Shown: positions 8,418 to 30,438 of the stretch, in pieces | Numbering within the stretch: the first letter of the stretch is position 1 | Layout: every line of letters starts with the position of its first letter | Source of the DNA: a virus | Strand: one strand, 5' to 3' | DNA: 31,272 bases | IMG/VR virus record: IMGVR_UViG_3300017738_000020 | Location: 1 to 31,272 of that record | Translations under genes and position numbers: made by a program | The notes under the pieces: model-generated | Seen by the model: the letters and a program-made list of their open reading frames with translations, nothing else | Database searches by the model: none | What the model was told of the DNA's origin: nothing

Positions 8418-8657
8418 ATGCCAAAAAAACGCCAAGTACATGAAAACCTAGTGAAATTTCATTGCCGTTTACCGGCCGAAACTAAGCAACGGCTGCAAGA
8501 TTATGCTGATAACCGGGATGAAACAGCAGCGAGGGTCTTAGCCGATCTTATAAATCTGCACATTCCAGACATCAATTCTAAGATTATTTTGCAGGTGCTA
8601 GATCGTGAACCTGGGGGCCAGGTAAACCTGGAAGAATGGCTAAGAAACCATGAGTAA
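8418..8657 (+). CDS. Ribbon-helix-helix (Arc/CopG-like) regulator
   Basis: 79 residues with AAAAAGGAAAAAAG before the ATG. The start MPKKRQVHENLVKFHCRLPA gives the basic arm and the DNA-contacting beta strand. KQRLQDYADNRDETAARVLADLIN (about 24-47) then gives the two helices of a ribbon-helix-helix dimer, with the usual small residue turn replaced by RDETA. The C-terminal 30 residues are extra and acidic. It sits beside a divergent promoter with paired repeats, so repression of the leftward early promoter, and perhaps of itself, is likely. It overlaps the RusA gene by eight bases. Confidence 0.7.
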   Translation: MPKKRQVHENLVKFHCRLPAETKQRLQDYADNRDETAARVLADLINLHIPDINSKIILQVLDREPGGQVNLEEWLRNHE

Positions 8658-9060
8658 GATCTCAGTCTATCTAAACGGCCAGCCGATCGGCAAAGGACGC
8701 CCCAGGTTTACCAGGACAGGACACACCTACACCCCGGAAAAAACCAGGCGCTACGAGCACAAGCTTGCAGCACAAGCATCCAACTGGATGATGCTCCGAT
8801 CTATGGATCCAATCACCCAACCTTGCCGGGTCGCTATCCTGGCACAGTTCCAGATACCTAAATCATGGTCTAAGAAGCGCAAAGCGGCTGCTACAGCAGG
8901 GGAAGTCTATCCTGGGCTACCTGATATCGATAACGTGGCAAAGATCGCTCTGGACGCCTTAAATGGCGTTTGCTTTGAAGATGATAAACAGGTGTACGAG
9001 CTAAAGGTTTCCAAGCGGTATGGCGAACCCATGATTTTAATAGAAGTGGATTGGGATTAA
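8650..9060 (+). CDS. rusA: RusA-family Holliday junction resolvase
   Basis: 136 residues. Hallmarks are the start ISVYLNGQPIGKGRPRFTRT, the central PDIDNVAKIALDALNGVCFEDD and the C-terminal YELKVSKRYGEP. Acidic residues Asp92, Asp94, Asp111 and Asp112 correspond to the metal-binding set of RusA (E. coli Asp70, Asp72, Asp91 region). The enzyme cuts four-way junctions symmetrically as a dimer; in a phage it resolves branched replication or recombination intermediates before packaging. Length is slightly above the usual about 120. It is translationally coupled to its neighbours: the start overlaps the repressor gene, and its stop shares a base with the initiator start (TAATG). Confidence 0.92.
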   Translation: MSKISVYLNGQPIGKGRPRFTRTGHTYTPEKTRRYEHKLAAQASNWMMLRSMDPITQPCRVAILAQFQIPKSWSKKRKAAATAGEVYPGLPDIDNVAKIALDALNGVCFEDDKQVYELKVSKRYGEPMILIEVDWD

Positions 9061-9908
9061 TGCGGCCACCCACCATCCGAAGCAAAGACCTGAGAAAGTT
9101 TAGCATCATTCCCTTCAAGGCAGTGATGGATAAAGAGCTACACGGAACCAGCGCGTTCACAGTCCTGGCGCTGCTCTGCTCTTACTGCGATGAAATAGGC
9201 AGAACATTCGTCAGCAATGCCAGGCTCGCCAAAGATCTCGGCGTATCAAGACCAGCCATCAACAGACAGCTGAAGAGACTCAAAGAGATGGGATACATCA
9301 CCTACGGCAGACCTCAATACAAAGGACAAACCACACGCACCTGGAAAGTAATCTACGATGACGTTACAGACGAAGATCAAGCCAGAGCAAACCTAAACGC
9401 AGCTGAGCAAATCTCACTCGCAGAACGGGAAAGAGAACTAGAACTTACAACCTCAAAGACTGAAAATAACACCGAACAGGATCAGAAAGGTGTAACACCT
9501 GGAGGTTACACATCTAAGGACGAACATGTAACACCTGGAGGTTACACCACATGTAACGCCCAGAGGTTACACATACCAGACCATATAACAGATAGTAATA
9601 GTAGTATAATAGAAGAAGCTAGAAATAATTGTGTTATGTTTTTAAGAGTAGCTGAAGCTTACGGTACTCCGAGAGTTATCAATGATCGAGACAATGAAAC
9701 TATGATTAAATGGATCAAGGACGGGCTGAAGCAGGAGGAATGGGGCAAGATACTGAAGCAGCACGTTGAGTATTGCCGATCAAAACACCGTGATATGGCC
9801 AGGGGAATCGGCTACTTTCAGATCCCGGTGAGCAAAAGCCTGGGCAAATCTGGCAATGAACAGGTCAACAATACAATCATAGGTATAGCAAAAAGGTTAA
9901 GGCGTTGA
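9060..9908 (+). CDS. Winged-helix replication initiator (lambda O-like organisation)
   Basis: 282 residues from ATG 9060 (TAATG with the RusA stop). The N-terminal domain (about 10-105) has KFSIIPFKAVMDKEL...FTVLALLCSYCDEIGRTFVS, then NARLAKDLGVSRPAINRQLK, LKEMGYITY and RTWKVIYDD, a winged helix typical of phage replisome organisers and plasmid initiators. A polar linker (about 105-195) carries the peptide repeat VTPGGYT and encodes three DNA iterons. The C-terminal domain (about 195-282; MIKWIKDGLKQEEWGKILKQ) is helical and may recruit a host helicase or loader. No helicase or polymerase gene is visible in this window, so this protein probably opens the origin for the host replisome. Confidence 0.7.
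   Translation: MRPPTIRSKDLRKFSIIPFKAVMDKELHGTSAFTVLALLCSYCDEIGRTFVSNARLAKDLGVSRPAINRQLKRLKEMGYITYGRPQYKGQTTRTWKVIYDDVTDEDQARANLNAAEQISLAERERELELTTSKTENNTEQDQKGVTPGGYTSKDEHVTPGGYTTCNAQRLHIPDHITDSNSSIIEEARNNCVMFLRVAEAYGTPRVINDRDNETMIKWIKDGLKQEEWGKILKQHVEYCRSKHRDMARGIGYFQIPVSKSLGKSGNEQVNNTIIGIAKRLRR
9490..9650 (+). other. Probable replication origin: three 22-bp iterons plus AT-rich segment
   Basis: Imperfect palindromes lie at 9490-9511, 9526-9547 and 9551-9572. All fit RTGTAACRCCYRGAGGTTACAC, with inverted arms GTGTAAC/GTTACAC; copies 1 and 2 differ at one base and copy 3 has three internal changes. They are followed by strongly AT-rich DNA (about 9573-9650). Iterons then an AT-rich unwinding element inside the initiator's linker is the plan of the lambda origin within gene O. 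Confidence 0.75.
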
Positions 9909-21185: not shown

Positions 21186-21629
21186 ATGGCGCAATTCGCA
21201 GCACCTTTAATGATAGCAGCATCAGCGTTAAGTGCTTATGGACAAATAAAAACTGGTGAAGCTAAACAGAAAATGTATAACGCGCAAGCTGCTCAAGCTG
21301 AGATGAAGGGCCGCTCGGAAGCTATTGCGTATAAACAGCAGGGCGCTGATGTTCTTCGTAACCTCAATGAAAATTTATCTGCAATCATTGCAAGATCTGC
21401 TGTTGGTGGTGATCCTACATCTGGGTCTGCTGCTGTTATTCAACAGTTTGCCATGTCTGAGGGTATTCGTGAAAAGAATATAGCGGCTGATAATGCGCTG
21501 CTTGCAGAAGGCCAGGCAGCAACGCAATCTCATCAATATAGACTTGCTGGTGATAATGCTCGCCGCTCGTCAATATATAGTGCAATCGGCACGCTTGGCA
21601 CGGCGGCTTATGGATATGGACAATTGTAA
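21186..21629 (+). CDS. Internal virion protein (T7 gp14 position)
   Basis: 147 residues. A hydrophobic N-terminus (MAQFAAPLMIAASALSAYGQIKTG) is followed by an Ala/Gln-rich helix (KMYNAQAAQAEMKGRSEAIAYKQQG) and the segment SAVGGDPTSGSAAVIQQFA. The C-terminus is Ala/Gly-rich (IGTLGTAAYGYGQL). The pattern (GGDP.SGSA) is common to small internal core or ejection proteins of marine podoviruses. In T7 the equivalent forms the outer-membrane part of the ejection channel. The next ATG follows its stop directly. Confidence 0.75.
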   Translation: MAQFAAPLMIAASALSAYGQIKTGEAKQKMYNAQAAQAEMKGRSEAIAYKQQGADVLRNLNENLSAIIARSAVGGDPTSGSAAVIQQFAMSEGIREKNIAADNALLAEGQAATQSHQYRLAGDNARRSSIYSAIGTLGTAAYGYGQL

Positions 21630-24251
21630 ATGGCTAGGATCCCAAGATATCAAAGATTAGGTGTTAGAACTAGGCAACCTCAAAACATAGACTTTGCTGG
21701 CTTTAGGGAAGAAGCTAATGCGGCTCAAAGTCTTTCCAGGTCTTTTGACCAAATGTCAGGTTTTTTATCAAAGACAGCTGCCAAAGAGGCCGAGCGGAGC
21801 GGGATCGAGCGCGTGCGAACTGAAGGTGCGCAGCCAATTCTTGAAGCTATAAGAGATCAAGGTGGCCCAAGAGGCATAGAGGAAACGGCTGCTTATGAAG
21901 CGGCCAATCAAATTGCTATTGCAGAAGTTCAAAGCGAGGCACAGCTAGAGATTACTAAAATCCTAGATAATGCTCAAATAAACAAAACGTCTTTTTCGGC
22001 GGTTCAAAGCCAGCTAAAAGATGTTAGCGATGGTTTCCCGGCGGCGTTATCGGATATTGATCCAGTGTCTGCTGGTGTATTGCGAGCCCGGTTAGAAGAA
22101 ACTGCTGGCAAAGCAGAGATGCGTTACTCAAAGTTTTACGCAGATGAGCAATTAAAAAATCGTAAGATTAAACAAAATTTAGTAAGCGCAAATTCAGCTG
22201 AGTCTATTATAGGAAACGCCATTATTCCGGATTACACGATTAATGAGATAAATAAGGACATTGACGAAGCGGTAGAAACCTTGCGGGGTTTGGGAACAAA
22301 GCCAGAGCTTATAGAAACCTGGGTTAAGAATACCAGAAACAAAGCTATAAAACAAAAAATTATTTTTAATTTTCATCAAGCGCCTCTTCACGAACAAGCT
22401 GGATATATTGATAGCCTTCTTGAAGGTAAAGAAACTTTGCCTGGTATGGACTTTGAGTCGACTATTAGAATGGTAAATGGTTCATTGCGGCCAGAGTACA
22501 ATAGAAACCTGGCTGTTGTAGAAGCGCAATCTGATTTAGTTGTTGATAAATCTGAAGACCAAATAGATATTCTGGAAAACGGTGGCAGCTTATCTGAAGA
22601 GGTTTTAGCAAGCATGTCATCTAGTGCTTCAGAGGTTGCTCGCTTTGATGGCGGTGCAGCAAAAAAAGCAGTTAATAATTTAGTACAGACAGATCAGTTT
22701 TATTCTACACTGCGCAATTTACCATTAAGCGGTGTAGAACAGCGGGTGCTTGAATTACAGTCTGGCATTGAAGGTGTTGGGAGCAAAGGCAGGGATACGG
22801 CGGCAGAGCAGTTAAATTACGAAAGAGCAACAAAATTCCTCGATAATATGAAAAAGGGTATAGAAGAGGATCCTATGGGATATGCCGAGCGCGTGGGGTT
22901 GATTACACGCAGTCCTATACTGACCATAGATGAAAACAAACGTGTGGAAATAGATGAACAAGCTTTAGAAACAAGAGTTCTCGATGCTAAAAGAGTAGCT
23001 AGTGAATACGGACTGCCAGTGCCTAGCTTGCTATTTGCCAATGAAGCGCGAGAAGTTGCTTTGATGCTAGACGTTGTTGATGGAAACGCAAAGCTTGATA
23101 TCCTGGGGGCGCTCTCAAGTTTTGATGCAGCGGCTGGCCAGGTGCTTACACAAGTTGCTGAGTACAGCCCAGAACTAGCAATGATTGGCGCTTTGGTTAA
23201 TCAGGGATCAACCGAGGCAGCGCGTATAGCTGTAGCTGGTTTAGATAGATTAAAAACTGGTGAAAAGATTGTTGAGTTTACACCAACCAATACTGAGCCT
23301 GTTGTTCAAAGTTTATTTAAAAGAGCCATAACATCATCACCTAAAATGTCGCAAGCCATTCAAGGTGTTGCTAAGGCAATCTATGCGGAAACTTCTGTCG
23401 CTAGTGGCAAACCTGGTTTTCAAGAAGATCTTTATACAGAGGCGCTGCAAATGGCAGCTGGGCAAACAACCAAAAAAGGCGTGGTGCGCGGTGGTATCCA
23501 GGAAATTAGAGGTGTTCAGACGTTTATTGATCCAGCACTTACTGCCGATCAAACTGAAAAAATGCTTAATGAATTAACCCCGGCTCTTGTTGCGAGCGTT
23601 ACCGGGCAAACTATGACTGATGCCTTAGTTGAGCAAATAAAAGAAAATGATGAATATCATCTGCGCAATGTGGGAGGTGATAAGTATGCAATTTTCTATG
23701 GTACGACAGGTGAGGTTTCTATTGCCGATAAAGAAGGAACTCCAATTGTTCTAAGCATGAAAGCGTTTAGAGATGCTGTTGCTGTAGGTTTGCCAAAGCC
23801 TAAAATCTATATGGGTGCGCGAAACTCGACTACCGGCCCAGGAATATATGGAATGTATAGAAGCTCGCGGATTGATAGAGACGCCCCATTTGACCCGGCG
23901 TCGTATGGAATACCATCAGATAGCCCCTTTACTCCTGAGGCCGATCTCCCACCAGTTGAGCTAGGCAAAGATCAACAATTCTTAACTGACCGAATGCAGA
24001 CTTCCGGCGGCGTTGCGCTTGAGAAATTCAGCAGAATGGAATTAAGAGAAAACATGCAGCAAATCGCTAAAGAAGCCGGTGCGAGCAGAAAGAGCAAAAG
24101 AGATAATGCATTAATTACTAAGTATATTAATCAAATCTTAGTGCCTGATGTGAATGATGCTGAACTTGCTGTAATCGGAGACTACATTCAATATTTAAAC
24201 AATCCTTCAAATAAGATAATTAAATATGCGGATTGGAAGAAAACCCAATGA
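21630..24251 (+). CDS. Internal virion protein (T7 gp15 position)
   Basis: 873 residues beginning MARIPRYQRLGVRTRQPQNIDF, a start seen in many podovirus internal proteins, then a long helical region rich in Ala, Glu and Gln (ANAAQSLSRSFDQMSGFLSK...). No enzymatic motif is visible. Size and helical content fit the ejection-core component (T7 gp15, 747 residues) that forms the periplasmic tube with the gp16 equivalent. Encoded between the small core protein and the large cargo-carrying protein, with an ATGA overlap to the latter. Assigned from position and composition. Confidence 0.7.
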   Translation: MARIPRYQRLGVRTRQPQNIDFAGFREEANAAQSLSRSFDQMSGFLSKTAAKEAERSGIERVRTEGAQPILEAIRDQGGPRGIEETAAYEAANQIAIAEVQSEAQLEITKILDNAQINKTSFSAVQSQLKDVSDGFPAALSDIDPVSAGVLRARLEETAGKAEMRYSKFYADEQLKNRKIKQNLVSANSAESIIGNAIIPDYTINEINKDIDEAVETLRGLGTKPELIETWVKNTRNKAIKQKIIFNFHQAPLHEQAGYIDSLLEGKETLPGMDFESTIRMVNGSLRPEYNRNLAVVEAQSDLVVDKSEDQIDILENGGSLSEEVLASMSSSASEVARFDGGAAKKAVNNLVQTDQFYSTLRNLPLSGVEQRVLELQSGIEGVGSKGRDTAAEQLNYERATKFLDNMKKGIEEDPMGYAERVGLITRSPILTIDENKRVEIDEQALETRVLDAKRVASEYGLPVPSLLFANEAREVALMLDVVDGNAKLDILGALSSFDAAAGQVLTQVAEYSPELAMIGALVNQGSTEAARIAVAGLDRLKTGEKIVEFTPTNTEPVVQSLFKRAITSSPKMSQAIQGVAKAIYAETSVASGKPGFQEDLYTEALQMAAGQTTKKGVVRGGIQEIRGVQTFIDPALTADQTEKMLNELTPALVASVTGQTMTDALVEQIKENDEYHLRNVGGDKYAIFYGTTGEVSIADKEGTPIVLSMKAFRDAVAVGLPKPKIYMGARNSTTGPGIYGMYRSSRIDRDAPFDPASYGIPSDSPFTPEADLPPVELGKDQQFLTDRMQTSGGVALEKFSRMELRENMQQIAKEAGASRKSKRDNALITKYINQILVPDVNDAELAVIGDYIQYLNNPSNKIIKYADWKKTQ

Positions 24252-27200
24252 TCCAATTTGATCGATCAGATGCTTATGACTTTCCCGGAGTAAGATTTAT
24301 ATCTGAGCCAGTTACTGGCTATGCAGAAAACTTTTTTGCAGCCAGGGAAAACTTGCGTCTTAACGATCAATCTCAAAGCAGACAAAAGATCCTGGGCGAT
24401 TTATGGACGCCAATTTATGAGGATATGGTTGAGCTATTTCCGGGCGAGGGTTTTGCCGGGAATGATTTTAAAAATCCAGGAGATTATCTTAGCGTAGGGT
24501 TAGGGATGTATAGCGCATCTGGAACCCCGGAAGACCGTTATAATTTTGAAGCAAACCTTATGCTTGAATTTATGCGCAAAAACCAGGAAAGCTTGCCCGA
24601 TCACCTTAAAGGTATAACGCTCGAAAGCCTGGAGCAAACCGCAAGAGAACGCGCCCAGGCGGCTAGAAAGACAGCTGAAGAGATAGGTTCCCGGTCAGAA
24701 ACTTTTAGCGGCACGTTGGGATCTTTTACGGGCGGTGTAGTTGGTCTTTCGGATGATCCAGTAAATGCCATTGCCGGGCTTGGGTTCTTATCTAAAGCTA
24801 AAACTTTATGGCGCTTGGCTTTTACTGAGGCAGTTATTGGCGCTGGCGCGGGAGCCGTTGCAGAGGCTGGCGTTAAAGAATGGTATGATGAGCTCGGTTA
24901 TGACTACGGTTATCAGGACTTTATTCGTAACGTATCTTTTAACGCAGCTGGTAGTGCAGCTTTTGGCGTTGGTATTAAGCTAACAGCTGATGGCGTTAGA
25001 GCCGGGTGGAACGCTCTAAGCAAATCCGGGCAAGCAAACAAGAACAGTCAGAACCTGGCGGATGCTGCACAAGCGGCGGAAGATCTCGAGGCAGATAACC
25101 CGCTATCAGATGCAGATATGCCCCCCGCTCAGGCAGAGCATGGTAACAGGGCAATCGAGGGCGAGGCAGGGGTAGAGAACAACAAAGCTCCAGCTATGTC
25201 TGAGCGCCCATTTATTGAGCCAAGTCCTGAGATAGTGCGAGCGGCTGCTGACAATCTTAATGGCGTAATGTTTTCTGTAAACGCTCGAGATATAAACATC
25301 GACGCCAAACGCTTTCAGTTTAAAGAAGGCGGGGATGAATACGGCGTTACTGAACGGCTCCAGGGAATAACTGAATGGGATCCTATTAAAGCTGGCACAG
25401 TTATTTTCTGGGAAGATAGTGCTGGTAAAATGTTTGTTGCGGATGGCCATCAGCGTGTTGGCCTGGCGCGGCGGATCCAGGCGCAAAAGCCTGACCAGGA
25501 TATTGAGATTATTGGCTACAAGTTGCGCGAGACAGATGGCGTAAGCGCAGAGAAGGCGCGTGTAATAGCCGCAATGGCAAATATTGCCCAGGGTACGGGA
25601 ACGGTGATTGACGCAGCCAAGGTGCTTCGATTGGAGCCTGGGCGCATATCTGAACTTCCCCCCCAGTCTGTCCTGGTAAGACAAGCCAGGGAACTGGTTA
25701 ATTTAAGCAACCAGGCATTCGGTGCTATCGTAAATGAGGTTATCCCGGCAAACTATGGGGCTATTGTCGGGCGGCTGATCGATGATCCTGGTCTGCAAGA
25801 CGCAGCGATTGCTGTGTTAGCAAAGTCAGACCCATCAAATATATTCCAGGCGGAAGCTATTGTTCGCCAGGTTAAAGAAATGGATGTTGTCCAGGAAGAG
25901 CAAGTTTCTTTATTCGGCGAAGAAATGATAACTCAAAGCTTGTTTACTGAGCGAGCTAAGGTTTTAGATCGTGCGACTAAAATATTGCGCGGTGATAAAA
26001 AAGCGTTTGAAAATTTAAATAAAAACGCTGAACGTATAGAAGCAGAAGGCAATAAGCTTGCCTCAGAACAAAACCAGAGAAGGGCAGACCAAGATGGCCA
26101 AGCGATCGCGCTCGTCCAGGCGCTTGCGAACAGAAAAGGCGTCCTCAGTGATGACCTCTCAGCGTCAGCAAGAACAGCCAGGGAAACAGGAAACTATGCA
26201 GACGCAGCCAGAGGGTTCGCCGATGCTGTCAGAAGAGGAATTGAACGAGGCGATTTTGATGGGGCGGGAATTGGCGATGTTGGACGCTCTGTCTATGCTG
26301 CGCCGCAAAGCCGCTCTGATGCGATCGAAACCGAGCCAACCCTAGACGGATTCGATCAGCCTACCGGGCCAGCTGCCGAAGCCCAAACCAATCAAATGGT
26401 TTTGGATACTTACAGAGAGCTAGACGAAGCAGAGCCCAAAATACCACAAGTTCTTAAACCTGGTGACATCGAACCCGATTGGAGCCCTTACATGTCGCTC
26501 CAGGAAGGTGACACACTTATTCCTGTTAATAAGATTAGGCCGGTAAAAGTACGCCCGGAAGGTGTTAAGAACGCTGTGCCGTTTATGCAGCAAGCTGCTC
26601 GGGGCGAAATTGATAAGCGCCCGGCGATCTTAGTTAAAGAAAATGAAGATGGTTCATATTCTGTGCGTGATGGCAATTCAACATATGCGATTGCAGCACA
26701 AGCTGGTTGGCCAGAGATGCCGGTTAAAATTGTAAATGACCAGGAATATGCAACTGAGCAAGCTCGTAAAGCTGTTGATCGTATTTTTAAACAAGACACT
26801 CTTGGAAAAAACAAACGGCGGTTTGTCGTTGCAAAAGATTTAGAAGGGCGAGAACTTAAAGTTATTGAAAATCGTCTTCGCGATCGGCAACCTCGAGATG
26901 TAGATGCATATATGGCGATGGCTACTAAAAACCATGATGATTTAAATGCGACAGCTGAGGCTGCTGCTAAAGAATTGGGAATGGATTTTAAACGAGCGCC
27001 GGTTAAACTGCTTGAAAAAATTAATAAGAAACTTGCGGGAAAAGGCCGAGCCGGTCAGATCCATACTATCGGCGATGCGGCACGGACAGGGATTACCGCT
27101 CGCACGATCGAGGAAAGTGATGCGTTTGTTGCCGCTCTTGCAAAGAAGTTTCACATTATAGATGAGGGTTGGATCATTACCCCAGCCGGGTATTTCGATA

Positions 27201-27976
27201 GAAAATTAATTGTTGTGTTTGATGATGGTGGCCTGGGGGAAATTCAAATTTGGCCCTTTGGTATGTTGGATGTAAAACAAAACCCAACAAAATTTGATAA
27301 ATCTGGACATGATTATTACGATATTGCCAATGACCCTAAATCATCCCTGGATGTAGTGGCAGATGCAAACTCAAAAATGGTCGAGCTTTATGGACTAGTT
27401 CAATCTGAACTAGATCCTTCTTTTGCTCGAAAGCTTGGCTTTAATGCGCCTAGTGTTGAAAGCATTGGATCAACAGCATCTGTTGAAAGCTCAATGGTTC
27501 GCTCGTTAGAGAGCGTTGCTCTTGCTAGATCCGCGGATCCCGTCCAGCCTAGATCTGGCCCTGACCAGGTTACAGCCTTAGATCCTTCTATGGCTACAAT
27601 ATCACCGTCTGCATCTCTGAAAAATCGCAATGTTCCCTCCTATGAATTAACAGAAGCCGGGGATCAACTATTAATCCCTGGTGTTGAACCTATCACAACA
27701 CAGCAACTTATGCGAGCCGCAAGTGATGAACCTATGCGCGGCGGCGAAGCTGCAATGCCAGAAGGTGGGCTATTTGATGATGATGCCCTCTCACAAATAG
27801 ATATAAGCGATATCACAGCTGGGATCAAGCCCGAGGACTTTGATATGGAAATCCCGGTGGATATGCGCGTAGAGGGTGATGTTGTTGTTGCTGAAGTAAA
27901 AACATTGCGTGACATCAAAGACGTTATCGAAGCCGAGGATGCAATGATTAATCGCCTGGGGGTATGTGGATTATGA
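24248..27976 (+). CDS. Polyvalent ejection protein: two ParB/DdrB-like domains and a RelA/SpoT-like domain
   Basis: 1242 residues from ATG 24248 (ATGA overlap; GGAAG upstream). The N-terminal third has a Gly/Ala-rich, membrane-prone segment (about 155-250: GTLGSFTGGVVGL, AVIGAGAGAVAEA), as in gp16-type ejection proteins. About 330-480 is a DdrB-like ParB domain with the motif D399-GHQR. It is followed by the QVSLFGEEMITQSLFTERA and EAEGNKLASEQN spacer seen in polyvalent proteins. About 748-830 is a second ParB-like unit (IPVNKIRPVKVRPE, SVRDGNSTYAIAAQ). About 880-1020 resembles RelA/SpoT: Asp943 (TIGDAARTGI), Tyr982 (PAGYFDRK), Glu998 (GEIQIWP). The protein likely enters the cell with the DNA and acts there. 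The domain calls are by motif, not search. Confidence 0.7.
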   Translation: MIQFDRSDAYDFPGVRFISEPVTGYAENFFAARENLRLNDQSQSRQKILGDLWTPIYEDMVELFPGEGFAGNDFKNPGDYLSVGLGMYSASGTPEDRYNFEANLMLEFMRKNQESLPDHLKGITLESLEQTARERAQAARKTAEEIGSRSETFSGTLGSFTGGVVGLSDDPVNAIAGLGFLSKAKTLWRLAFTEAVIGAGAGAVAEAGVKEWYDELGYDYGYQDFIRNVSFNAAGSAAFGVGIKLTADGVRAGWNALSKSGQANKNSQNLADAAQAAEDLEADNPLSDADMPPAQAEHGNRAIEGEAGVENNKAPAMSERPFIEPSPEIVRAAADNLNGVMFSVNARDINIDAKRFQFKEGGDEYGVTERLQGITEWDPIKAGTVIFWEDSAGKMFVADGHQRVGLARRIQAQKPDQDIEIIGYKLRETDGVSAEKARVIAAMANIAQGTGTVIDAAKVLRLEPGRISELPPQSVLVRQARELVNLSNQAFGAIVNEVIPANYGAIVGRLIDDPGLQDAAIAVLAKSDPSNIFQAEAIVRQVKEMDVVQEEQVSLFGEEMITQSLFTERAKVLDRATKILRGDKKAFENLNKNAERIEAEGNKLASEQNQRRADQDGQAIALVQALANRKGVLSDDLSASARTARETGNYADAARGFADAVRRGIERGDFDGAGIGDVGRSVYAAPQSRSDAIETEPTLDGFDQPTGPAAEAQTNQMVLDTYRELDEAEPKIPQVLKPGDIEPDWSPYMSLQEGDTLIPVNKIRPVKVRPEGVKNAVPFMQQAARGEIDKRPAILVKENEDGSYSVRDGNSTYAIAAQAGWPEMPVKIVNDQEYATEQARKAVDRIFKQDTLGKNKRRFVVAKDLEGRELKVIENRLRDRQPRDVDAYMAMATKNHDDLNATAEAAAKELGMDFKRAPVKLLEKINKKLAGKGRAGQIHTIGDAARTGITARTIEESDAFVAALAKKFHIIDEGWIITPAGYFDRKLIVVFDDGGLGEIQIWPFGMLDVKQNPTKFDKSGHDYYDIANDPKSSLDVVADANSKMVELYGLVQSELDPSFARKLGFNAPSVESIGSTASVESSMVRSLESVALARSADPVQPRSGPDQVTALDPSMATISPSASLKNRNVPSYELTEAGDQLLIPGVEPITTQQLMRAASDEPMRGGEAAMPEGGLFDDDALSQIDISDITAGIKPEDFDMEIPVDMRVEGDVVVAEVKTLRDIKDVIEAEDAMINRLGVCGL

Positions 27977-30438
27977 GTTTTAGAAAATGTGTCGAGGATG
28001 GTGTTGCTGCTAAAGAAATTAAACAAGAACAGGCAGACGAATATCTGAACCTATTCGATGATCTGGTGGAGCAATACAACAAGCAGTTAGGCCCAGGCCC
28101 GGCGCAAACAAAGGCGGGTATTGATGCAGCCGAGGCGGTGCGCAAGAAAGCAATCGAGCGCAAACGCCGCACTATGCTCCAGGCAATGACATGGAAAAAG
28201 ATTTCCCTGGATATGGAAAACTACAAAACCATAACCGGCCAGAAAGATCCTGGCCGCGCAGCCCTGGCATTCTTCGAGCAAGACGCAACCTCTAAGCATC
28301 TTAGCATTGTGCAGTTACAAGCAGCGATCGAGCGCAGCGCAACGAGAAAGATGGATAAGTTCTTAGCAACCTTTCGCCGGGATGTATTGGGCAGAACCAG
28401 AAACAAAGCTCAAATGAATAATCTTCTCAGGGAAATATTTGATGAAGATACCGGGGATGCTGCCGCTCGAGAGCTTTCCCAGGGTTGGAAAGAAGCATCA
28501 GAATATTTGCGTAAAAGATTTAATTCAGCTGGTGGCGCTATTCCTAATCGTAAAGATTGGGGCTTACCTCAAACGCATAGCACTTTAAAAGTTAGGGAAG
28601 CTTCTGAGCGGGAATGGATTGATTTCATAGCACCCAGGTTAAACCTGGATAAAATGGTGGATCAACAAACGGGTCTTAAATTCTCTGCTGAAAAATTAGA
28701 ATTTGCTTTAAAAGACGTTTACGAAACTATTCGTACCGATGGAATGAGTAAAGTTAAGCCAAGCGGTCGTGGATCTAGCAAAGCCCTGGCAAATCAAAAC
28801 ACAGATCATCGTTTTTTAGTATTTAAAAATGCTAATGCCTGGATGGAATACCAGGATAAATTTGGCGGCGATAATCCGTTTGATATTATGATGGGCCACA
28901 TTAGCAATATGTCCAGGGATATTGCGTTTATGGAGCGCCTGGGGCCAAACCCTATGGCCACAAAAGAGTTTATAAAGCAAACAATCCGCAAGCAAGCTGC
29001 TGGGGATTCTAAGGCTGAGGATCGTGTTGCTCGGCAATCCGAAAAAATAGATGAGCTATATAATATTTTAAACGGCACAAGTAACCAGCCAATTGATAGA
29101 AAGTGGGCAGCAACTTTTGCTGGAACCAGGCAGCTATTGCAATCGGCGCAGCTTGGTGCGGCTGCAATCTCGGCTCTTACAGATGTAAACTTTAACCGCA
29201 TTGCCCGGCAAATGAATGGCTTGCCGCAAACCAAAACCTTAATGCAGTATCTCAAGCTTGTGAGCCCTCTCGGCGCAGAAGAAAAGGGGCGGCTGGCTGT
29301 GCGCCTGGGCCTAACAGCTGAAGGTTGGTCAACCCTGGCGGCTGCGCAAATGCGCTACACCGGGGATATATCTGGCCCGGAAGTTACCAGGCGGATTGCT
29401 GACTTTGTAATGAGGGCTTCACTTCTTTCCCCCTGGACGCAAGCCGGGCGCTGGGCTTTTGGCATGGAGTTCCTGGGCAAGCTTGCAGATGATGCGGGTA
29501 AATCCTTTAAAGAGCTAGATCCTGTTTTCCGCAAGGCGCTTGATCGCTATAACCTGGGCGGTGAGTATTGGGATATAATCAGGCAAACAGAGCTATACGA
29601 TTATAAAGGTGCTAAGTTTCTTAGGGCAGAAGATATTGAGTTCCGCACTGATATAGATCCGCGCTTGGCAAGAGATCTTGCAACCAGGGTTATGGCAATG
29701 GTTGAGACAGAAACAAACTTTGCGGTTCCCTCAACGTCTATTCGTGGCCGCTCTGCGCTAACTGGTGATGTAAAGCCTGGCACACTCGTCGGTGAACTTG
29801 CTCGATCGTTTGCTATGTATAAGAATTTCGGCGTTACCCTGGTCAACACGCACATTATGCGGGGCGCTGCTACGCCAGGCGTTAAAGGTAAGGGGCGTTA
29901 CTTTGCGGATCTACTCATAAGCACTACGATTATGGGGGCGCTGGCGATACAATTAAAAGAAATGTCAAAGGGGCGTGACCCTCGCTCGATGGAAGATCCT
30001 GAGTTCTGGGGTGCGGCGTTTCTCCAGGGCGGTGGTTTAGGGATCTATGGCGATTTCTTATTCTCGGACGTTAATCGCTTCGATCGAGGCTTGGCGGAAA
30101 CGATTGCTGGCCCGGTTGTTGGCTTTGCGGGGGATCTTAAAAATTTAACGATCGGTAATATAAGTGAAGCTGTTCGGGGTGAAGATACAAAGGCTGCAAG
30201 TGAAATGATTAACTTTGCTGCACGTTATGCACCTGGTGCATCGTTGTGGTATATGCGCCTGGGCCTCGAGCGCATGGTATTTGACCAGGCAAAATTATGG
30301 GCAGATCCAAAGGCAAACAGCAAGATGCGACGCAATGTGCGCAAGTATCAAAGGGAATACGGTCAGGATTACTGGTGGAGCCCAGGACAAACGCAACCAT
30401 CAAGGAGCCCAGACTTTGACAATCTGTTTGGGAATTAA
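27973..30438 (+). CDS. Large internal/ejection protein (T7 gp16-position, C-terminal unit)
   Basis: 821 residues; ATG 27973 overlaps the previous stop (ATGA), preferred over ATG 27964. Starts MSFRKCVEDGVAAKEIKQEQ, followed by long helices. Later segments such as LGRTRNKAQMNNLLREIFDE, WGLPQTHSTLKVREAS, RFLVFKNANAWMEYQDKFG and MMGHISNMSRDIAFMERLGP are recurring in C-terminal parts of giant phage internal proteins. Hydrophobic patches near 600-720 (FADLLISTTIMGALAIQL) could insert in a membrane. No lytic transglycosylase motif is seen. It probably forms the ejection channel together with the preceding protein; in related phages the two are sometimes one chain. Confidence 0.65.
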   Translation: MSFRKCVEDGVAAKEIKQEQADEYLNLFDDLVEQYNKQLGPGPAQTKAGIDAAEAVRKKAIERKRRTMLQAMTWKKISLDMENYKTITGQKDPGRAALAFFEQDATSKHLSIVQLQAAIERSATRKMDKFLATFRRDVLGRTRNKAQMNNLLREIFDEDTGDAAARELSQGWKEASEYLRKRFNSAGGAIPNRKDWGLPQTHSTLKVREASEREWIDFIAPRLNLDKMVDQQTGLKFSAEKLEFALKDVYETIRTDGMSKVKPSGRGSSKALANQNTDHRFLVFKNANAWMEYQDKFGGDNPFDIMMGHISNMSRDIAFMERLGPNPMATKEFIKQTIRKQAAGDSKAEDRVARQSEKIDELYNILNGTSNQPIDRKWAATFAGTRQLLQSAQLGAAAISALTDVNFNRIARQMNGLPQTKTLMQYLKLVSPLGAEEKGRLAVRLGLTAEGWSTLAAAQMRYTGDISGPEVTRRIADFVMRASLLSPWTQAGRWAFGMEFLGKLADDAGKSFKELDPVFRKALDRYNLGGEYWDIIRQTELYDYKGAKFLRAEDIEFRTDIDPRLARDLATRVMAMVETETNFAVPSTSIRGRSALTGDVKPGTLVGELARSFAMYKNFGVTLVNTHIMRGAATPGVKGKGRYFADLLISTTIMGALAIQLKEMSKGRDPRSMEDPEFWGAAFLQGGGLGIYGDFLFSDVNRFDRGLAETIAGPVVGFAGDLKNLTIGNISEAVRGEDTKAASEMINFAARYAPGASLWYMRLGLERMVFDQAKLWADPKANSKMRRNVRKYQREYGQDYWWSPGQTQPSRSPDFDNLFGN

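What the first reader, a model, noticed from the sequence alone, without database searches (positions are those of the whole stretch)
24248..27976. Ejection-position protein is a polyvalent protein with two ParB/DdrB-like and one RelA/SpoT-like domain
The N-terminal third looks like an ejection protein, but the rest carries a D-GHQR ParB/DdrB-like domain, a second ParB-like unit with RDGNSTYAIAAQ, and a segment with the Asp...Gly-Tyr...Glu-Ile-Gln-Ile spacing of RelA/SpoT nucleotidyltransferases. Polyvalent proteins are thought to be injected with DNA to counter host defence. An alarmone-synthetase-like domain delivered by the virion could alter nucleotide pools or signalling at the moment of infection.
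Basis: partly seen in the sequence, partly recalled or inferred. Interest (0 to 1): 0.85.

Follow-up and report, generated by a model that had tools for sequence, protein, structure and literature searches.

The report
Phage ejection protein with swappable enzyme
A short-tailed marine phage encodes, in the set of proteins it probably pushes into its host with its DNA, a large protein carrying an alarmone-making enzyme domain, and in near-identical relatives that same slot holds a different such enzyme, a zeta-toxin-type kinase, or nothing.

Summary
Residues 872-1066 of the 1242-aa protein (24248-27976) are a RelA/SpoT-type synthetase domain. A 29-sequence profile finds Tas1/Apk1 in the PDB at E=1.4e-21, with three other alarmone synthetases next. 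The AlphaFold model has pLDDT 94, and every Foldseek hit below 1e-3 is an alarmone synthetase. Both ParB domains are supported: the first is a full ParB/Noc-type domain plus helix-turn-helix, the second a ParB N-domain.

The domain sits in an exchangeable slot between a conserved scaffold and a conserved C-terminal tail. Of 46 non-redundant relatives, 18 carry this synthetase alone, 3 the second ParB plus synthetase, 5 a second, RelP-like synthetase and 17 a zeta-toxin kinase; 2 are empty and one is truncated. Near-identical scaffolds carry different cargo.

Best reading: an ejection-position polyvalent protein delivering one of several nucleotide-consuming effectors. RelA/SpoT domains in polyvalent and MuF phage proteins were already known, so this is a new variant. 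Injection, activity and acceptor nucleotide are untested.

The parts
24248..27976 (+). Whole ORF, 1242 aa, between an upstream ejection-block ORF (21630-24251) and a downstream virion protein (27964-30438); overlaps both
24248..25234 (+). Residues 1-329: N-terminal scaffold region, conserved across relatives (down to about 26-30% identity); ejection function inferred from gene order only
25256..25885 (+). Residues 337-546: ParB/Noc-type N-domain plus helix-turn-helix domain (ParB-1), contains DGHQR
25886..26362 (+). Residues 547-705: helical rest of the conserved scaffold
26363..27799 (+). Exchangeable cargo slot (about residues 706-1184); here it holds ParB-2, the synthetase domain and linker
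26450..26842 (+). Residues 735-865: second ParB N-domain (ParB-2), contains RDGNSTY
26861..27445 (+). Residues 872-1066: RelA/SpoT-type (Tas1/EAS-like) pyrophosphokinase domain
27005..27031 (+). Lys920 and Lys928, counterparts of the conserved synthetase lysines (Apk1 chain K284 and K292 as printed)
27074..27085 (+). Asp943-Ala-Ala-Arg946, counterpart of SaEAS D121/R124 and Apk1 D327/R330 (catalytic DxxR)
27191..27205 (+). Tyr982-Phe-Asp984-Arg-Lys986: acceptor-base motif, D-x-K instead of RSH S-x-H or Apk G-x-N
27239..27247 (+). Glu998-Ile-Gln1000, counterpart of the ExQ metal/ATP motif (SaEAS E182/Q184, Apk1 E382)
27800..27973 (+). Residues 1185-1242: conserved C-terminal tail shared by proteins with different cargo
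21186..21629 (+). Upstream internal virion protein (phrog_418), marks the ejection-protein block
27964..30438 (+). Downstream virion structural protein (phrog_684); its start overlaps the stop by 13 bases, leaving no room for an immunity gene

Best explanation
The protein is an ejection-position polyvalent protein of a short-tailed phage. A constant scaffold (N-terminal region, ParB/Noc-like DNA-binding region, C-terminal tail) carries an exchangeable effector. In this phage the effector is a ParB N-domain plus a 195-residue pyrophosphokinase of the exported alarmone-synthetase type. Proposed mechanism: the protein is packaged with the other internal virion proteins (inferred). It enters the cell with the DNA, perhaps held to it by the ParB-type domains (inferred). 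In the cytoplasm the synthetase moves pyrophosphate from ATP to the 3'-OH of a purine nucleotide (inferred from fold and active-site residues). This produces an alarmone and drains nucleotide within the first minutes, changing host transcription and metabolism in favour of the infecting phage or against rivals (inferred). Related phages achieve something comparable with a zeta-type kinase or a second, RelP-like synthetase in the same slot. Shown by computation: fold, active-site residues, purifying selection, slot exchange, gene order. Not shown: virion location, injection, activity, product, benefit.
For: Profile hits to Tas1 (1.4e-21), SaEAS, and two GTP pyrophosphokinases. Model pLDDT 94.2; all 40 Foldseek hits below 1e-3 are alarmone synthetases, Tas1 first; VIA Z 15.1 RelP, 14.6 Tas1 (168 aligned, 3.2 A), 14.3 SaEAS. 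Lys920, Asp943, Arg946 in 50/50 and Asp972, Glu998, Lys1010 in 49/49 of about 50 distinct sequences. dN/dS 0.05-0.25 in the domain. Slot exchange: window and L002 share 92-97% DNA in most of the slot but only 41-71% in the scaffold; flanking genes 68-70%. In near-identical relatives the aligned DNA breaks at the slot. At least 31 cargo changes on the scaffold tree of 84 rows. Zeta_toxin Pfam 2e-19. Gene order with internal virion proteins.
Against: No experiment shows the protein in virions or in cells. The acceptor motif D-x-K is neither the RSH nor the Apk type, so the product cannot be named. No immunity gene follows in any NT1 locus tested, whereas the MuF-Apk2 toxins have two. An enzyme as fast as Apk1 would also drain nucleotides the phage needs. 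No cultured phage in the collection carries the domain. The N-terminal third has only a weak family match.
Confidence: 0.62

Rival explanations
1. The synthetase fold is kept but acts on tRNA 3'-CCA ends, like toxSAS enzymes FaRel2 and CapRel, and blocks translation rather than making an alarmone.
For: VIA also matches CapRel at Z 12.2 and FaRel2 weakly. The acceptor motif D-x-K differs from both nucleotide-making classes.
Against: Profile and Foldseek place Tas1/EAS first, toxSAS tRNA enzymes far lower (FaRel 4e-3, Z 6.7).
Confidence: 0.15
2. The cargo acts in the producing cell, made late in infection, as a superinfection or competitor-exclusion factor; its place in the ejection protein is only a way to express it.
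For: No direct test of injection exists. A review (PMC8118318) links prophage-encoded SAS toxins to superinfection exclusion.
Against: Fusion into a virion-block protein between conserved scaffold and conserved tail would be an odd way to express a late cytoplasmic toxin, and no immunity gene is present.
Confidence: 0.15
3. The domain is an inactive NTase kept as a structural or nucleotide-sensing element of the ejection protein.
For: Empty-slot relatives exist, so the cargo is not needed for assembly; many polyvalent proteins hold uncharacterised domains.
Against: Metal and ATP-site residues are invariant in about 50 distinct sequences. A purely structural role does not explain replacement by unrelated zeta kinases.
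Confidence: 0.06
4. Assembly chimera or frameshift artefact.
For: All records carrying the domain are metagenomic contigs.
Against: The same architecture occurs in dozens of independent contigs with open frames and low dN/dS.
Confidence: 0.01

Closest known systems
Tas1/Apk1 (type VI effector, (p)ppApp synthetase, PDB 6ox6)
   Same: Closest solved relative by sequence (1.4e-21) and by Foldseek; same K...K, DxxR, GY, ExQ layout, AK and GH-x-x-Y motifs
   Different: Delivered by a PAAR domain through type VI secretion, with an immunity gene; acceptor motif G-x-N, here D-x-K
Exported alarmone synthetases (SaEAS, VpEAS; mBio 2025, PMC12691689)
   Same: Same domain type; published active-site residues D121, R124, E182, Q184 have counterparts here. 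Secreted EAS-like bacterial proteins show D-x-N/K at the acceptor motif
   Different: Listed export routes are Sec, WXG/LXG, XopAD, MuF, DUF4157 and Rhs/PAAR; a podovirus ejection protein is not among them. The phage domains form their own clade (98% SH-aLRT)
Apk2 MuF polymorphic toxins of temperate phages (PMC12226406)
   Same: Phage virion-associated protein with a synthetase as variable effector
   Different: MuF head protein instead of an ejection-position protein; cargo at the very C-terminus; two immunity genes follow (iapK, aph1), none here
Polyvalent proteins with RelA/SpoT, ParB or zeta-toxin domains (Iyer 2017, PMC5512222)
   Same: Multidomain phage proteins predicted to be injected; [quoted passage not shown] zeta kinases reported in MuF fusions
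   Different: Here in the ejection slot of marine short-tailed phages, with two diverged synthetase families and zeta kinases exchanged in one defined slot of near-identical phages
Noc/ParB-type DNA-binding proteins
   Same: ParB-1 matches N-domain plus helix-turn-helix of Noc; ParB-2 matches the Noc N-domain
   Different: No ParA partner or parS-like function known; the conserved box reads DGHQR or RDGNST

Membership tests
RelA/SpoT-type synthetase (SYNTH) domain | Pol-beta NTase fold of alarmone synthetases | tested here: met
RelA/SpoT-type synthetase (SYNTH) domain | Metal-binding Asp and Glu, acceptor-stacking Tyr, conserved lysines | tested here: met
   D943, E998, Y982, K920, K928 conserved in about 50 distinct sequences, aligned to Tas1 and 2be3 motifs
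RelA/SpoT-type synthetase (SYNTH) domain | Pfam RelA_SpoT (PF04607) above gathering score | tested here: not met
   Best member 0.058, window none. The family lies below that model's reach, so it is filed by fold and profile, not by Pfam
RelA/SpoT-type synthetase (SYNTH) domain | Pyrophosphate transfer from ATP to a 3'-OH | not testable with these tools
   needs enzyme assay
Apk/EAS exported alarmone synthetases | Sequence similarity over the whole domain and DxxR...ExQ active site | tested here: met
Apk/EAS exported alarmone synthetases | G-x-N acceptor motif of (p)ppApp-making Apk enzymes | tested here: not met
   D984-x-K986 instead, D984 in 49/49 sequences; so not filed as a (p)ppApp synthetase
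Apk/EAS exported alarmone synthetases | Known export-recognition domain | tested here: inconclusive
   No Pfam match to any such domain in the window protein, but Pfam is blind to most of this protein; delivery would be by ejection
Polyvalent protein | Several unrelated effector-type domains in one late-gene phage protein | tested here: met
   ParB-1, ParB-2 and synthetase in the virion gene block
Polyvalent protein | Carried into the host with the DNA | not testable with these tools
   needs virion proteomics and translocation assay
DdrB-like ParB domain | Match to a DdrB-ParB family model | tested here: inconclusive
   No such Pfam match in 21 members; fold matches ParB/Noc
ParB N-domain (ParB-2) | Sequence match to ParB_N | tested here: met
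   Noc 1.4e-4 in PDB; ParB_N in 3 of 7 homologues, best 1.4e-4, though the window copy alone has no such match
Polymorphic toxin | Constant delivery part with interchangeable toxin domains | tested here: met
Polymorphic toxin | Linked immunity gene | tested here: not met
   A long ORF follows, overlapping by 1-13 bases in 50 of 52 loci; the other two are one contig seen twice
Ejection (internal virion) protein | Position between internal virion protein genes | tested here: met
Ejection (internal virion) protein | Present in the virion and released into the cell | not testable with these tools
   no virion data

The most novel reading that the evidence does not exclude
Ejection proteins of marine short-tailed phages are a virion-borne polymorphic effector system. 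One slot in an otherwise constant protein is swapped between alarmone synthetases of two families, zeta-type kinases, or nothing, so phages that are near-identical elsewhere deliver different nucleotide-consuming enzymes at entry. The D-x-K acceptor motif marks a synthetase subfamily of unknown, possibly new, product.
Probability: 0.5. Interest if true: 0.82.

Novelty: new variant of a known kind. Interest (0 to 1): 0.62.

Why it matters
If the cargo is injected and active, phages would set the host's alarmone or nucleotide state from the first moments of infection rather than after gene expression, and could change that payload by a single in-frame recombination. Natural pairs that differ mainly in cargo, and empty-slot relatives, make it directly testable what a virion-delivered effector is worth to a phage. 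It would also add a delivery route to the exported alarmone synthetases and link them to zeta kinases as exchangeable payloads.

Tried and rejected
Pfam, NCBIfam and single-sequence PDB searches of the window protein: nothing useful; the GARS_A hit is below cut-off and covers a non-catalytic piece. tblastn of the synthetase domains against cultured phages: no match; against plasmids: one weak Photobacterium hit. ParB-1 by sequence profile: no ParB hit in Pfam or PDB, so it rests on the fold. A GNAT-like stretch before ParB-2 in L036, L037 and L041 was suspected by eye, but Pfam gave no GNAT hit for the L036 piece, so it is not claimed. The idea that the product is (p)ppApp because Tas1 is nearest was dropped: the G-x-N signature is absent, and VpEAS, which makes only (p)ppGpp, belongs to the same broad family. 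The idea that the phage is plainly lytic and T7-like was dropped: the virion block is T7-like, but the replication gene is O-like and no RNA polymerase was found in the window, so lifestyle is open. PHROG naming of the ParB-1 region as portal protein (phrog_21) is probably a fusion effect: the match is to the last 300 or so positions of a 1362-position profile.
Full report
WHAT IS THERE. The window is a 31,272-base virus record. Its virion genes run in the order seen in the cultured Methylophilales phage MEP301: head-tail connector, T7-type capsid assembly protein, capsid, tail tubular A and B, internal virion protein, then large ejection-block ORFs. The capsid is 62% identical to that of MEP301. 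The protein in question (24248-27976, 1242 aa) lies between an upstream ORF that matches the start of the corresponding MEP301 ORF and a virion structural protein (phrog_684, 2.6e-180). It overlaps both.

SYNTHETASE DOMAIN. Single-sequence searches are blind to it. One relative, L004, has Tas1 as its only PDB hit, at 0.29. A profile of three sequences reaches Tas1 at 6.7e-7, and 29 sequences reach 1.4e-21, followed by SaEAS (3.7e-4) and two GTP pyrophosphokinases. The AlphaFold model of residues 872-1066 has mean pLDDT 94.2. All 40 Foldseek matches below 1e-3 are alarmone synthetases, Tas1 first. VIA-align gives Z 15.1 for RelP, 14.6 for Tas1, 14.3 for SaEAS, and 12.2 for the tRNA enzyme CapRel, well above unrelated polymerases at 7.5.

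ACTIVE SITE. The HMM alignment to Tas1 pairs Asp943, Arg946, Glu998 and Gln1000 with D306, R309, E361 and Q363 of the chain as printed. A constant offset of 21 turns R309 into the published R330 and E361 into E382 (PMC12691689). SaEAS D121, whose mutation inactivates that enzyme, and R124 have the same D-x-x-R spacing. Across about 50 distinct phage domains Lys920, Asp943 and Arg946 are present in 50/50, Asp972, Glu998 and Lys1010 in 49/49, and Tyr982 in 48/49. dN/dS between pairs is 0.05-0.25, similar to the scaffold (0.06-0.19).

PRODUCT. The motif that reads the acceptor base is S-x-H in guanosine enzymes and G-x-N in Apk adenosine enzymes (PMC12226406). Here it is D-x-K throughout. The closest bacterial relatives found are an Apk1-type PAAR protein and short secreted EAS-like proteins with D-x-N or D-x-K. 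VpEAS makes only (p)ppGpp while Apk1 makes (p)ppApp. I therefore name the domain an alarmone-type pyrophosphokinase and leave the acceptor open.

PARB UNITS. Residues 337-546 model as a ParB N-domain plus helix-turn-helix; pLDDT of the whole construct is only 72.7, but most of this part is above 75. Foldseek ranks Noc first (8e-5) and then ParB; VIA gives Z 10.5 with Noc over 191 residues. Residues 735-865 match Noc by sequence profile at 1.4e-4, and Pfam ParB_N in 3 of 7 relatives.

THE SLOT. The synthetase is not a fixed part of the protein. I collected 80 loci by the ParB-1 scaffold alone and reduced them to 46 representatives. Eighteen carry this synthetase alone, 3 carry ParB-2 plus synthetase, 5 carry a different domain called NT2, 17 carry a P-loop kinase, 2 have no cargo and 1 is truncated. 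The kinase is Pfam Zeta_toxin at 2e-19. NT2 is also a RelA/SpoT-type domain: its three best PDB hits are RelP-type synthetases (0.012-0.041), profile-profile comparison with this family gives 95.8% probability (E 7.7e-9), and the two HMMs cross-detect in the same segment. NT2 keeps Asp and Glu at the two metal positions but has GW for GY.

EXCHANGE. On a tree of the ParB-1 scaffold (84 rows) cargo type changes at least 31 times. This row set includes loci found by cargo, so the count shows exchange, not frequency. L011 (synthetase) and L122 (zeta) have identical ParB-1 scaffolds at the protein level. L139 (zeta) and L140 (NT2) are 96-99.5% identical in DNA over about 10 kb except in the slot. 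The window and L002 are 92-97% identical in DNA over most of the slot, but 41-71% in the scaffold and about 68-70% in flanking genes; synonymous divergence is 0.17 in the domain against 1.65 in the scaffold. L163 looks like L021 with the synthetase deleted in frame. The last 58 residues are conserved whatever the cargo.

NO IMMUNITY GENE. In 50 of 52 loci the next long ORF starts 1 to 13 bases before the end of the stop codon; the other two are one contig seen twice. MuF-Apk2 prophage toxins, by contrast, are followed by two immunity genes. This argues against a classical interbacterial toxin and fits an effector released into a cell that is being taken over, but it is not proof.

MECHANISM. 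All three cargo types are ATP-using phosphotransferases; the zeta substrate is known from the literature to be a cell-wall sugar nucleotide (and general knowledge). These substrates are cytoplasmic, so the cargo should need to reach the cytoplasm. Apk1 turns over 180,000 per minute. If the phage enzyme were similar, a few injected copies could convert roughly 10^5 to 10^6 nucleotides per minute, comparable with the ATP pool of a small marine cell; copy number and rate are assumptions. That would be a strong early signal, and also a cost to the phage. I cannot resolve this conflict.

COMPARISON. Iyer and colleagues (PMC5512222) already reported RelA/SpoT domains in polyvalent proteins and MuF fusions, and zeta kinases in MuF fusions. 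The 2025 survey of exported synthetases lists Sec, WXG/LXG, XopAD, MuF, DUF4157 and Rhs/PAAR routes, not ejection proteins. Predicted structures of uncultured tailed-phage proteins include annotated RelA/SpoT, DdrB-like and ART-PolyVal proteins with this fold. The domain kind is therefore known. The ejection-position slot, its exchange between phages that are otherwise near-identical, and the D-x-K synthetase clade are what I did not find described; literature coverage here is limited to open-licence papers.

LIMITS. Everything is sequence and predicted structure. The N-terminal third has only a weak PHROG match (phrog_8824, 2.3e-5). Phage lifestyle is open: the replication gene is O-like and no RNA polymerase or integrase was identified among the ORFs scanned.

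Noticed in passing
L122, L126, L139, L141, L147, L156, L158, L168, L174, L181 (slot of the same gene): A zeta-toxin-type P-loop kinase (Pfam PF06414, up to 2e-19) occupies the cargo slot in 17 of 46 representatives.
   Followed up: yes
L042-L062, L065-L113: Second cargo family NT2: RelP-like RelA/SpoT-fold domain with GW in place of GY and VEWYLP in place of EIQIW; also found in giant (2,000-3,000 aa) phage proteins.
   Followed up: partly
L163 versus L021: Natural in-frame loss of the synthetase: scaffolds near-identical, with a stub LKARQPVETVDD left before the C-terminal tail.
   Followed up: partly
L019, L026, L128, L134: About 150 extra residues of no known family between scaffold and synthetase.
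   Followed up: no
L063 / L198 (uncultured Pseudovibrio contig): Giant protein (about 2,257 aa) with two tandem copies of the synthetase domain.
   Followed up: no
KT820175 (Ruegeria phage 45A6), OM416763 (Prochlorococcus phage P-SCSP1a), HQ332136 (SI2): Cultured phages carrying the ParB-1 scaffold in giant proteins (about 3,912 and 2,571 aa) or, in SI2, in a 792-aa version; none of the cargo profiles matched in the parts read.
   Followed up: partly
window 9051-9908 and 8650-9060: O-like replication initiation protein and RusA next to a T7-like virion block; no RNA polymerase or integrase found among the ORFs scanned.
   Followed up: partly
L002 downstream of 9714: The next ejection ORF starts 289 bases after the stop instead of overlapping it, possibly a frameshift in that contig.
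   Followed up: no
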